A stretch of DNA of 64,000 bases from Candidatus Hydrogenedentota bacterium (GTDB lineage: Bacteria; Hydrogenedentota; Hydrogenedentia; Hydrogenedentales; JAEUWI01): assembly GCA_019637335.1 (NCBI GenBank), contig JAHBVV010000001.1, positions 124,001 through 188,000 of the forward strand, in the 5' to 3' direction. Both the position numbers and the translations under genes were made by a program. The notes beneath the pieces are model-generated. The model was not told the DNA's origin. It did not search any database and saw only the letters and a list, made by a program, of their open reading frames with translations. Of the stretch, positions 56,744 through 60,400 are shown piece after piece (the first letter of the stretch is position 1; each line of letters starts with the position of its first letter).

Positions 56744-57280
56744 CCCCACCGCCTCCCGCAGGCGTGCCACGGTCAAGCCCGCAAGGGCTTGCCCGTGCAA
56801 GTCCCCTCAGGGACTGACACGCCACGCCACCTCACCCTCCGTTCCCCCCAAACCCCACCCCGTGCCACGCGATCGCGCCCCCCCAGGGACTGACACGCCC
56901 AACCACCCCACCCGGCATATCTGACCCGGACGTCAACTATCCCTGCTCCAATCGGGCGCACAACGCCCAACCGGCGGGGTCTGTCCCGTCATCCCCATCG
57001 CCACCCCAGGCGTGCCACGGACAAGCCCGCAAGGGCTTGCCCGTGCAAGTCCCCCCAGGGAGCGCCACGCCACGCCACCTCACCCTCCGTTCCCCCAAAC
57101 CCCACCCCGTGCCACGCGATCGCGCCCCAGCGCGTTCGTGTGCCCGGAGCAACACCAGCCCACCACCGCCAGTACCACCCCGCACGAGCGGCAAAACCGC
57201 CCCACGCTCCAAGCCTCCACCAAGCTCAACCGGCGGGTCTGTCGCGTCATCCCCATCGCCTCCCCCGGGCGTGCCACTAA
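56744..57280 (+). repeat. R9 direct repeat, about 2.2 units of ~250 bp
   Basis: AGGCGTGCCACGG starts at 56760 and again at 57008 (248 bases apart), each followed by CAAGCCCGCAAGGGCTTGCC, CGTGCAAGTCCCC, CCACCTCACCCTCCGTTCCC and CACGCGATCGCGCCCC. A third partial unit (CCGGCGGGTCTGTC, CATCCCCATCGCC, GGGCGTGCCAC) ends at 57277. An inverted copy lies at 60130-60400. Confidence 0.68.
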
Positions 57281-57283
57281 AAC

Positions 57284-57300
57284 AGGGACAGCCACCTATT
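57284..57300 (+). repeat. REP-like site R10 (AGGGACAGCCACCTATT)
   Basis: This 17-mer precedes the RAYT gene. A near copy AGGGACAACCACCTATT is at 59526-59542, and the inverse GGCTGTCCCTATTT is at 58036 just after the RAYT stop. Such sites are the expected substrates of REP-associated transposases. Confidence 0.6.
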
Positions 57301-57301
57301 C

Positions 57302-57330
57302 TTGACAAATCCCCGTTTCCGCGCTATACT
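57302..57330 (+). promoter_or_regulatory. Near-consensus sigma70 promoter of the RAYT gene
   Basis: TTGACA at 57302-57307, 17-base spacer, TATACT at 57325-57330. The ATG at 57338 is 7 bases beyond the -10 box, so the expected transcript begins at or near the start codon and lacks a leader. Confidence 0.65.
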
Positions 57331-57337
57331 CTTCCCC

Positions 57338-58033
57338 ATGCCAAGACTCGCACGCATCGTGGTGGCGGGAGAGCCCCACCACATCACCCAGCGCGGTAAT
57401 AACCAGCAGGACGTCTTCTTTGTGGACGACGACCGGCGGGTGTACCTCCAATTTCTGCGGCAATACGCGACGCGGTATCGGCTCCGTATCCACGGCTACT
57501 GTCTGATGACCAACCACGTGCATATCATTGCCGTGCCGGAGGTGGAGGAGGCCCTGGCCAACGCCATCGGGCGCGCGCACTTCCGCTACAGCCAGTACTT
57601 CAACCAGTTGCACCAGCGCAGCGGCCATCTCTGGCAGGGCCGTTTCCACTCCTGCACGCTCGACGAAGCCCACTACGGCAACGCGATGCACTACGTCGAG
57701 CAGAACCCCGTCCGCGCGAAGATGGTGCGGAAGCCGTGGCGCTACCGGTGGTCCAGCGCGGCCGTGCATGTGGGGGAGCGAAAGGACGACGGCCTGCTCG
57801 ACCTCGACCGCTGGCGCGAGGCCCACGGCGACGAAGCCCGCTGGCGCGCGGTGCTGGAGCAGGGGATCGACCCCGATTTCGCCGAGACCTTCCGCCGCAA
57901 CACCCACACCGGCCGCCCCCTGGGCACGGCCGGCTTCCTGAGTATGCTGGAAGCCCAACTCGGCCGCCGCCTCCGCGCCCTGCCCGTCGGCCGCCCGCGG
58001 AAGGTAAAGACGGGTGGCGGGAGGAAAAAATAG
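57338..58033 (+). CDS. REP-associated tyrosine transposase (RAYT, Y1/HUH)
   Basis: A 231-residue single-strand DNA transposase of the IS200/IS605-like Y1 superfamily. It starts MPRLARIVVAGEPHHITQRG; the HUH motif is MTNHVHIIAVP, and the catalytic tyrosine is probably that in AMHYVEQNPVRAKMV. RAYTs act on REP palindromes and usually occur singly as domesticated genes. REP-like sites flank it on both sides in opposite orientation. The C-terminus ends in a basic GRPRKVKTGGGRKK tail. Confidence 0.93.
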   Translation: MPRLARIVVAGEPHHITQRGNNQQDVFFVDDDRRVYLQFLRQYATRYRLRIHGYCLMTNHVHIIAVPEVEEALANAIGRAHFRYSQYFNQLHQRSGHLWQGRFHSCTLDEAHYGNAMHYVEQNPVRAKMVRKPWRYRWSSAAVHVGERKDDGLLDLDRWREAHGDEARWRAVLEQGIDPDFAETFRRNTHTGRPLGTAGFLSMLEAQLGRRLRALPVGRPRKVKTGGGRKK

Positions 58034-58050
58034 AGGGCTGTCCCTATTTG
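58034..58050 (-). repeat. REP-like site R10, inverted copy after the RAYT gene
   Basis: GGCTGTCCCTATTTG directly after the stop is the inverse of the site at 57284, so the transposase gene is bracketed by inverted REP-like sequences. Confidence 0.5.
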
Positions 58051-58243
58051 CCTAGCTACCTGCCTCCTCCTGGTACGCTAGTATCATCAAGCCATCGTAT
58101 GTAACTAGCATTCAAATGTCGTTTAGATATGCGAGTCGCCCTGTAGCCAGCAATGATAGAGTAAGCCCGGGAAGGGCAGCGATTAGAGACAACCACTATA
58201 TCGGGGCTATGTCAAGTGAAGCGTCAATCGGAGGAGAGTACAC

Positions 58244-58400
58244 AATGAAGCAGTTCTTCATTTGGGGGCATGGGTGTAATCAATACACACTTTTGGATAC
58301 GACAACAATCCGCAGAAAGTCGTATGGAACTGGGCAAAAGTTGTCGATACAGAAGCTCGCTGGTTGTGATGGAAACGAGCACATCCTGGAATGTCCCTAA
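58244..58400 (+). CDS. Small ORF of unknown function, doubtful
   Basis: ATG 58244 has GGAGGAG 8 bases upstream and opens 51 codons (MKQFFIWGHGCNQYTLLDTT at the start). No family is recognised and composition is unremarkable. The overlapping third frame reads GYDNNPQKVVWNWAKVVDTE, equally protein-like, so this may be debris and not a gene. Confidence 0.28.
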
Positions 58401-58417
58401 TTCCGAGGAGGAGCACT

Positions 58418-59422
58418 ATGAAGACTTTCTTATTTGTTGGAGCTATTGTCGTTCTCTTCTTGACCTCGAATACTACAGCGGTCGCCGGAACCTTCGTCCC
58501 GCCAAGGTTCACGGTGACTGCGGAAATCTCGGAGACAGCACTGATTGCGGGGGCACCACTCTATGTCTATTTGACAGTCACGCGGGAAGAGGATGGGAAT
58601 CCCGAACTTGCAACCGTGTCCCTGACATCCATAAATGACAATGTCCGATTGCAAATAGACGACCTGAATGCCCAGGAGGTCAAGAGACGTCCAAGACAAC
58701 CATGGCCTGCCGTTAATGGGCTTGAGTTCTTGCTGTTCAAGCCGCTCGGGGCGGGGGAATCGTATACCAAGACGCTGATCGTGCATCGCTGGAGTTCCAC
58801 GGCGTTGCCAGCAGGCAGTTATACTGTCGTTGTGGAGGCGCCGCGTCTCAACTATTATATGGAAAAAAATCGAAGTGAATGGCATCCGGTGCTTGAGAAG
58901 CCATTCCGAAAGGCTATTCCCCTGAAGATTCTTCCACCCGACCACGAACGGGTTGCCCGAATCTTTGACGAAATGCTTACGGCTGTGACCGCGGAGAGCA
59001 CACCCTGGAGTGATCGATATCGGGCTTTGGACTCGATAATCTTCGCGCAGGGCCCAGACGCTCTTGCGTCACAGTTAGGACTATTGGCGGCTATGGAAAA
59101 GGACACCGTGCGGTTTGGTTACGGGCAAAAGGAGATTGTGACCATGCTGTGGTACATTGTGCAGTCTGCGGACGTTGCCACCGCCCGCGCGTTGGCCGCG
59201 CTCGCACGAGGTCCCGTATTCGGAACCAATCTGGACGGAGAGGATCACTCTGGCCGCGGGATCTGGCCTATGTTGGGCTGGGCTATTCATGAGCTGCACC
59301 GAACGGGGAGCCCGGAAGTCCAGGCGGTTACGAAGGAATTAGTGGAGGTGGTGCCCGATAAACCCGGACTGGTAGAAATGACTTTCCAGCATGGCGGCAT
59401 GCAGTTCGACAAGGATTATTAA
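58418..59422 (+). CDS. Exported protein of unknown function
   Basis: A 334-residue protein starting at ATG 58418 with GGAGGAG 5 bases before. It has a signal peptide (MKTFLFVGAIVVLFLTSNTT, cleavage near AVAG). Residues ~30-170 look like a beta-sandwich (FTVTAEISETALIAGAPLYV, VYLTVTREEDGN, ALPAGSYTVVVEAP), and ~180-330 look all-helical. The gene is clearly less GC-rich than its neighbours and lies between a RAYT and RHS debris, suggesting transfer. A role as a periplasmic immunity or accessory protein is possible but unsupported. Confidence 0.68.
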   Translation: MKTFLFVGAIVVLFLTSNTTAVAGTFVPPRFTVTAEISETALIAGAPLYVYLTVTREEDGNPELATVSLTSINDNVRLQIDDLNAQEVKRRPRQPWPAVNGLEFLLFKPLGAGESYTKTLIVHRWSSTALPAGSYTVVVEAPRLNYYMEKNRSEWHPVLEKPFRKAIPLKILPPDHERVARIFDEMLTAVTAESTPWSDRYRALDSIIFAQGPDALASQLGLLAAMEKDTVRFGYGQKEIVTMLWYIVQSADVATARALAALARGPVFGTNLDGEDHSGRGIWPMLGWAIHELHRTGSPEVQAVTKELVEVVPDKPGLVEMTFQHGGMQFDKDY

Positions 59423-59423
59423 T

Positions 59424-59520
59424 GGGGGCCACCAGATCGCGGTGATGGTGGGCTCGGTGGCCATCACAGCGGTGACGGCCCAGAACTGCATGTACTACGG
59501 GTGGAGCTATCGAAAACTAT
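59424..59520 (+). pseudogene. C-terminal coding fragment, possibly an RHS tip
   Basis: The frame from 59424 reads GGHQIAVMVGSVAITAVTAQ and ends with YYGWSYRKL at a stop. It starts directly after the preceding stop with no start codon of its own. It resembles a C-terminal tail cut from a longer protein; a link to RHS is suggested only by the YD-repeat piece beside it. Confidence 0.35.
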
Positions 59521-59525
59521 AAACT

Positions 59526-59542
59526 AGGGACAACCACCTATT
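59526..59542 (+). repeat. REP-like site R10, distal copy
   Basis: AGGGACAACCACCTATT differs at one position from the site ahead of the RAYT gene at 57284. Confidence 0.55.
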
Positions 59543-59548
59543 AATCTA

Positions 59549-59750
59549 TCTCTTGGTCTAGACATCACCACCTGTTACGTCTATGATGACCTCGGTGCCA
59601 TGATTGAGATGACGGACCCGCGGGGTAAGGTTACGGAGTTCGAGTATTCGCCACGGCGGACGCTTGGCGCTGATCCGAGCTGCTGCGGCGGCGGGCAGTT
59701 GGAACTGGTGCGGGACGCCCCGAACCCCGTGGCACGGAAGTGGTGGGTGC
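59549..59750 (+). pseudogene. RHS/YD-repeat fragment
   Basis: The frame gives CYVYDDLGAMIEMTDPRGKV, followed by TEFEYSPRRTLGADPSCCGG and GQLELVRDAPNPVA. The YDDLG...DPRGKVTEFEY pattern is one full YD repeat. No start, signal or further repeats flank it, so it is a remnant of a large RHS-type gene. Confidence 0.7.
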
Positions 59751-60129
59751 ATGCGTTGAAAAAGCGAGGAGCAGGCAGCATTTTCGCCCCTTGATGCCGA
59801 TGCATGCCGCGCGCAACGGCCCGACCCCGACCGGGACATACCCCCGCGCTGCGGCGTGAAGCGTTGACGCTCCGGGCGCCATTGGACGCGAGGGCGCCTG
59901 CCGCAACGTCTGGCGCCAGTGCGCGGGTACGTCCCTTGGGTTGGCGCCGCCAAGGGACGGGTGCGCGCTGCTCACCTCGACCCCACGCACATAGACCGGC
60001 GTCCCGCGCATGCGACCGCCGCCCTTCCCGAACACCGCCGGTGCGCGCGCCTGTCCCGGTCCGGGTAGCGGTGGGAGGCGTGACTGTGACGGGGGGCTTG
60101 TGCTTGCTCGACGTGTAGTTGGGGGTGGT

Positions 60130-60400
60130 ATTGGCGTGTCGGTCTCTGGGGTGACTGGCACGGGCAAGCCCTTGCGGGGCAGTTGACAGTTGACAGTTGA
60201 CAGTTGACAGTTGACAGTTGACAGTTGGCGGTTGATAGTTGTCACAGGGGTGGTGGAAGGGTGGATACAGGCCGGATGCCCTGCCTCCTGGGAGTTGAGC
60301 CGCTCGTGCGGGGTGGTTGTGGCGGTGTTGGGTTGGCTTTGCTCCAGGCACACGAATCCGCCTGGGGCGGAATCGCGTGGCGCGTTTTTGGGGCGTTGGC
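60130..60400 (-). repeat. R9 repeat, inverted copy
   Basis: On the minus strand 60130-60180 matches CCGCAAGGGCTTGCCCGTG and GACACGCC of 56744-57030. 60291-60385 matches 57105-57200 (CCACGCGAT, GCGCCCCAG-like, TTCGTGTGCC, GGAGCAA, CACCGCCA, ACCACCCCGCACGAGCGGC). The two parts are separated by the heptamer repeat region. Confidence 0.62.
60181..60222 (+). repeat. Heptanucleotide tandem repeat (AGTTGAC)6
   Basis: Six perfect AGTTGAC units followed by degenerate AGTTGGC and GGTTGATAGTT to about 60240, set inside the inverted R9 copy. This looks like slipped-strand expansion; no gene spans it. Confidence 0.85.

What the first reader, a model, noticed from the sequence alone, without database searches (positions are those of the whole stretch)
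56744..60400. Transposase, exported protein and RHS debris bounded by inverted copies of a ~250-bp repeat
R9 lies as ~2.2 direct units at 56744-57280 and as an inverted copy at 60130-60400. The enclosed ~2.9 kb holds a RAYT, a lower-GC exported protein gene and broken coding pieces. The layout resembles a composite island whose borders are homologous inverted repeats, allowing inversion or excision.
Basis: partly seen in the sequence, partly recalled or inferred. Interest (0 to 1): 0.6.

Follow-up and report, generated by a model that had tools for sequence, protein, structure and literature searches.

The report
Decayed Rhs island with mobile RAYT
The segment is a patchwork of a small self-contained transposase element, a low-GC exported-protein gene and leftovers of an Rhs gene, sitting among common dispersed repeats; the inverted repeats are scattered palindromes and not the borders of one mobile island, while the sharp boundaries are the transposase element's own end motifs.

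Summary
The reading that R9 repeats border an invertible or excisable island is not supported. R9 is a REP-like palindrome with a covarying stem, present about once per 61 kb on the largest contig. Standalone copies follow local GC skew (30 of 33 arrays). The right-hand copy belongs to a different dispersed unit ("T") whose R9 always points the other way (7 of 7), and the longest exact shared inverted stretch is 21 bp. The genuine mobile unit is the 0.77-kb RAYT element (57279-58050). It is a TIRtron with GGGACAG terminal inverted repeats, 95% identical to a copy on contig C34, and the same termini flank its homologues in many phyla. A third copy of this terminus lies at 59521-59543. The paralogous C34 locus matches the window up to the RAYT right end and again from this third terminus, but carries unrelated exported-protein cargo between them. 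Both loci look like decayed Rhs-tip islands. Whether the TIRs actively swap cargo, or only mark insertion points, is open.

The parts
56744..57278 (+). Left R9 array: about 2 direct units of palindromic (REP-like) repeats
   Evidence: hairpin in 57010-57075 folds at z -3.75
57108..57191 (+). R9 core, standalone class, oriented as local GC skew predicts; REP-like hairpin about 57113-57142 with T.T mismatch
   Evidence: z -4.7
57279..57300 (+). Left terminal inverted repeat (TIR) of the RAYT element, AAAACAGGGACAGCCACCTATT
   Evidence: identity with C34 starts at this motif; same motif upstream of 38/80 homologues against 1.4% control
57302..57330 (+). Sigma-70-like promoter TTGACA-17-TATACT just inside the left TIR
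   Evidence: 11/12 consensus; consensus match only
57338..58033 (+). RAYT/TIRYT Y1 transposase, 231 aa, catalytic NHVH (59) and YVEQNP (119) intact
   Evidence: nearest solved structure TnpA-REP 4er8
58028..58049 (+). Right TIR of the RAYT element, AAATAGAGGGCTGTCCCTATTT; supplies the RAYT stop codon
58051..59520 (+). Variable cargo block, unrelated to the cargo at the same position in C34
58116..58400 (+). Small ORF (94 aa, 47.7% GC region) upstream of the exported gene; possible Rhs-tip fragment, no database match
   Evidence: inference
58418..59422 (+). Exported protein, 334 aa, signal peptide by eye; homologues only 33% and 25% in two relatives
   Evidence: fold not resolved (pLDDT 45)
59427..59522 (+). 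Short hydrophobic tip-like frame (...GWSYRKL*) whose stop overlaps the third TIR
   Evidence: inference from comparison with the C16 Rhs tip
59521..59543 (+). Third copy of the RAYT TIR, same orientation as the left TIR; start of the constant tail shared with C34 and C16
59552..59791 (+). Rhs (YD-repeat) fragment
59722..60117 (+). T unit: dispersed repeat, also in C3, C11, C16, C34, C40, C41, C46, C18
60180..60241 (+). (CAGTTGA)n heptamer array inside the T-R9 compound
60299..60383 (-). R9 core, T-linked class, orientation opposite to local GC skew

Best explanation
The locus is a decayed Rhs-tip island invaded by a TIRtron. SHOWN: a 0.77-kb element (57279-58050) made of a RAYT-type HuH/Y1 transposase with intact catalytic motifs between GGGACAG terminal repeats has a near-identical copy and degenerate copies elsewhere in this genome. 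Downstream of it lies low-GC cargo, then a constant tail made of a third TIR, an Rhs fragment, a T unit and an inverted R9. The same architecture recurs on contig C34 with unrelated cargo, and the identity stops and restarts at the TIRs. R9 is a REP-like palindrome found at many sites; its standalone copies follow local strand skew, and other copies are carried inside T units in the opposite orientation. INFERRED: the element spreads by single-strand (HuH) transposition; the window and C34 loci descend from one duplicated Rhs island; their cargo (tip fragment plus exported-protein gene) was later displaced, as Rhs tips are elsewhere. R9 plays no border role; its inverted arrangement results from two repeat classes with opposite orientation meeting at the same island.
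For: C34 shares RAYT (95% over 766 bp) and the tail (93% over 580 bp) with the window, at similar divergence. Base-level junctions fall at the TIRs on both sides. GGGACAG TIRs flank RAYT homologues in many phyla: 38/80 upstream, 40/80 downstream, 34/80 both, against 1.4% in control windows. This matches the published TIRtron consensus GGGGWSAS (PMC3733652; PMC6006769 subclass 2.1). Rhs ends, T units, R9 and TIRs co-occur at C3, C11, C16 and C24. R9 orientation tracks GC skew in 30/33 standalone arrays (P=7e-7), while T-linked R9 is 0/7. The R9 stem covaries (pair 14-27: CG 24, GC 20, TA 10 copies). Rhs C-terminal displacement is a published model (PMC2935791).
Against: No empty site could be examined, because gene order around murB/iPGM is not conserved in relatives. 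The Rhs fragment scores just below Pfam's cut-off. The cargo ORF fragments called tips have no database support. Only two loci carry the RAYT-cargo-tail architecture, so duplication followed by replacement is not separated from two parallel insertions. Only 2 of 80 RAYT homologues elsewhere have Rhs-like sequence nearby, so the Rhs link is peculiar to this genome.
Confidence: 0.68

Rival explanations
1. One reading: R9 copies are homologous inverted borders of a composite island that can invert or excise by recombination.
For: R9 is in inverted orientation on both sides, and convergent R9 pairs around Rhs remnants are more frequent than random placement (3 against 0.45, P=0.006).
Against: C34 has the island without a left R9; the longest exact inverted match is 21 bp and the longer matches are 82-89% identical; about 90 R9 matches in the genome; the right-hand R9 is part of the T unit and always opposite to skew; recombination between inverted repeats gives inversion, not excision (general knowledge).
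Confidence: 0.06
2. TIR-directed cassette exchange: the TIRYT cuts at TIR copies and so promotes replacement of whatever lies between the RAYT right end and the downstream TIR, making the Rhs tip/exported gene an exchangeable cassette.
For: Unrelated cargo between matching flanks with junctions at the TIRs. The exported family of C34 has 4 copies at 3 loci in the genome; C34 and C2 carry clear RAYT/TIR sequence beside it and C1 a weak remnant. A TIR lies at the stop codon of an Rhs tip in C16.
Against: The third TIR is in direct, not inverted, orientation relative to the left TIR. The homologue in G003 has no RAYT or TIR nearby. No activity evidence; only two full architectures.
Confidence: 0.12
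3. Independent accretion: RAYT element, tail, T and R9 each inserted separately next to unrelated Rhs tips, and the TIR junctions simply mark insertion points with no exchange.
For: All parts are dispersed repeats found separately elsewhere. In C16 the tail follows an Rhs tip with no RAYT.
Against: RAYT and tail show similar divergence between window and C34 and the same order and orientation, which favours joint descent.
Confidence: 0.14

Closest known systems
TIRtron / TIRYT (Di Nocera 2013, PMC3733652; subclass 2.1 in Quentin 2018, PMC6006769; RAYT group 1 of Bertels 2017 as cited there)
   Same: Y1 HuH transposase with Y---NP signature, flanked by terminal inverted repeats carrying GGGACAG (consensus GGGGWSAS)
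   Different: A 95% identical second copy with the same ends in the genome, whereas class 2 genes are described as low-copy with low intra-genomic identity; a third TIR lies beyond the cargo
REPtron / REP-associated tyrosine transposase (Nunvar 2010, PMC2817692)
   Same: RAYT gene flanked by inverted repeats that recur in the genome
   Different: Flanking repeats are weakly folding TIRs and lack the GT(A/G)G-headed stable REP form; R9 is not the flanking repeat of the RAYT and its homologues
REP/BIME palindromic repeats
   Same: R9: about 30-nt hairpin with conserved, covarying stem, many copies, arrays
   Different: Embedded in an 84-nt conserved core with a C-rich stretch; no GTAG or CGTC foot seen; strong strand bias
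Rhs loci with displaced C-terminal tips (Jackson 2009, PMC2935791)
   Same: Core pieces followed by lower-GC variable tips and downstream ORFs, with dissociated fragments
   Different: Here only short Rhs remnants remain, intermixed with a TIRtron and repeats

Membership tests
TIRtron (TIRYT) | HuH/Y1 transposase of TnpA-REP type with Y---NP motif | tested here: met
   NHVH at 59, YVEQNP at 119; PF01797; 4er8 best solved structure
TIRtron (TIRYT) | Terminal inverted repeats with GGGGWSAS-like motif flanking the gene | tested here: met
   LE GGGACAGCC, RE inverted CTGTCCC; motif in homologues; definition
TIRtron (TIRYT) | C-terminal HTH/DnaA-C-like extension of subclass 2.1 | tested here: inconclusive
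   An extension after residue 140 exists but no Pfam HTH was hit
TIRtron (TIRYT) | Mobility | tested here: inconclusive
   95% copy with same ends in C34 and degenerate copies; no transposition assay
REPtron | GTAG/GTGG-tagged REP hairpins flanking the RAYT | tested here: not met
   Flanking motifs are GGGACAG TIRs that fold weakly
REP repeats (for R9) | Short palindrome with conserved stem in many copies | tested here: met
   55 distinct copies, compensatory changes in the apical stem; z -4.7 and -3.5
REP repeats (for R9) | GTAG or CGTC tag at the foot | tested here: not met
   No such tag seen in the core consensus (by eye)
Composite transposon / invertible island with R9 borders | Matching border repeats move with the segment | tested here: not met
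   C34 counterpart lacks the left R9
Rhs tip locus | Rhs core pieces plus variable tip and downstream ORF | tested here: inconclusive
   Rhs fragment just below Pfam cut-off in the window; clear cores in paralogous islands C11, C16, C24

The most novel reading that the evidence does not exclude
The TIRs of a TIRYT transposase act as boundaries of exchangeable cassettes: the transposase nicks single strands at TIR copies behind Rhs genes and so helps swap Rhs tips and their downstream exported-protein genes.
Probability: 0.12. Interest if true: 0.7.

Novelty: new member of a known kind. Interest (0 to 1): 0.36.

Why it matters
It turns a suspected invertible island into an ordinary but instructive mosaic: a TIRtron that looks recently mobile, a REP-like family with replication-linked orientation, and Rhs remnants. 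If the TIR-cassette idea held, it would link a little-studied transposase group to Rhs tip exchange, whose excision step has only been modelled.

Tried and rejected
Empty-site comparison: murB and iPGM are not adjacent in the relatives examined and G001 shares almost no local gene order. R9 as the RAYT's substrate: rejected as most likely, since the TIR and not R9 flanks the RAYT copies and homologues. General RAYT-Rhs association: rejected, 2 of 80 homologue loci. A hairpin scan for GGGACA TIRs in 1.76 Mb was too noisy to give a clean count: 45 hits against 18-178 with control tags. Rfam: nothing in 54-64 kb. Structure of the exported protein: pLDDT 45, not searched further. Literature search for RAYT with Rhs: no paper in the library held all four terms.

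Full report
OBSERVATION. The R9 array at 56744-57278 and an inverted R9-like block near 60.13-60.38 kb are present. The inverted block is split: a 47-nt palindromic piece, a (CAGTTGA)n array, then the R9 core. Between lie a RAYT (57338-58033), a 334-aa exported-protein gene (58418-59422) and an Rhs fragment. The cargo is clearly lower in GC (47.7% and 54.7%) than the window (65.1%), with GC3 60.5 against 87-91 for the flanking genes; the RAYT itself matches the genome (GC3 87.4).

WHAT R9 IS. Searching the genome with the 537-bp left block gave 90 matches. A profile of the 84-bp core found 16 copies on the 973-kb contig C1, about one per 61 kb, and 50 in 1.76 Mb (the other contigs were chosen because they hold R9 or RAYT copies). 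The core contains a hairpin with a central T.T mismatch. Its apical stem occurs in three compensating forms (CG 24, GC 20, TA 10 at one pair), and both window copies fold far better than shuffles. Shorter, weaker matches occur in three same-genus genomes and one same-family genome, plus one match in a more distant one. R9 is therefore a REP-like palindromic repeat family.

WHY THE TWO WINDOW COPIES ARE INVERTED. Among standalone R9 arrays, 30 of 33 are oriented as local GC skew predicts (P=7e-7); copies embedded in another dispersed repeat, the T unit, are opposite in 7 of 7. The left window copy is standalone and the right one is T-linked. Two repeat classes with opposite habitual orientation meeting at one locus give an inverted pair without any island duplication. 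Skew-linked orientation would fit insertion into single-stranded DNA at the replication fork, as reported for IS200/IS605 relatives (PMC6006769); this is inference, and a transcription-linked bias would look the same. Convergent R9 pairs are still over-represented around Rhs remnants (3 against 0.45, P=0.006); the window is one of the three.

THE RAYT ELEMENT. A 766-bp stretch (57285-58050) is 95% identical to C34:34275-33511, and other remnants lie in C2, C10 and C40. The matching region begins at GGGACAGCCACC and ends at CTGTCCCTATTT. The same termini flank homologues in genomes from many phyla (34 of 80 at both ends; control windows 1.4%). This is the TIRtron/TIRYT arrangement with consensus GGGGWSAS (PMC3733652; PMC6006769). 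A near-consensus sigma-70 promoter lies just inside the left end and the catalytic motifs are intact.

THE CARGO BOUNDARY. C34 repeats the order RAYT, cargo, Rhs tail, T unit, R9, but the cargo is a different exported protein of 445 aa. Identity between window and C34 ends at the RAYT right end and resumes at a third TIR copy at 59521-59543. C16 has the same third TIR and tail directly behind an Rhs tip without any RAYT. The C34 exported family has four copies at three loci in this genome. RAYT or TIR sequence is clear beside it in C34 and C2 and only a weak remnant in C1 (RAYT start, E=0.03, behind a mutated TIR); its relative in G003 has none. The simplest account is a duplicated Rhs island with later cargo displacement, as modelled for Rhs tips (PMC2935791). 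Active TIR-directed exchange is possible but unproven.

RELATIVES. The window exported protein has only 33% and 25% homologues in two of ten relatives. The nearest RAYT homologue is 78% identical in G001, with the same TIRs. murB and iPGM are not neighbours in the relatives examined, so presence or absence at this exact site could not be tested.

VERDICT. Real features with a mostly wrong border assignment. It is a mosaic of known kinds: TIRtron, REP-like repeats and Rhs remnants. The unusual point is the TIR-to-TIR cargo difference between two paralogous loci, seen only twice.

Noticed in passing
genome contigs C1, C3, C11, C16, C24, C34 (G000): R9 cores follow local GC skew in 30 of 33 standalone arrays, so they could mark replication direction; T-linked cores are opposite in 7 of 7.
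   Followed up: partly
G000:C3:66200-68700: A second RAYT (C3:67047-67649) sits inside a dense array of GGTACAGGCACCCTCGC-type repeats.
   Followed up: no
G000:C23:91700-92900: Another RAYT (C23:92005-92658) lies among CCGGGACATACCCCCGCG repeats; the same motif occurs in the T unit of the window.
   Followed up: no
G000:C32:25692-25904: An Rhs core match lies in an open frame of about 6570 residues, an unusually large reading frame.
   Followed up: no
G000:C1:882951-884192, C2:33897-36574, C34:31905-33239: A lineage-restricted family of about 450-aa exported proteins with no Pfam match; C34 and C2 loci carry clear RAYT/TIR sequence, C1 a weak remnant.
   Followed up: partly
window 60180-60241; also in C2, C10, C16, C41: Heptamer array (CAGTTGA)n recurs inside T-R9 compounds and varies in length.
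   Followed up: no
window 58028-58036 and 59520-59530; G000:C16:120105-120120: TIR copies overlap stop codons of the genes they follow, for the RAYT and for an Rhs tip.
   Followed up: no
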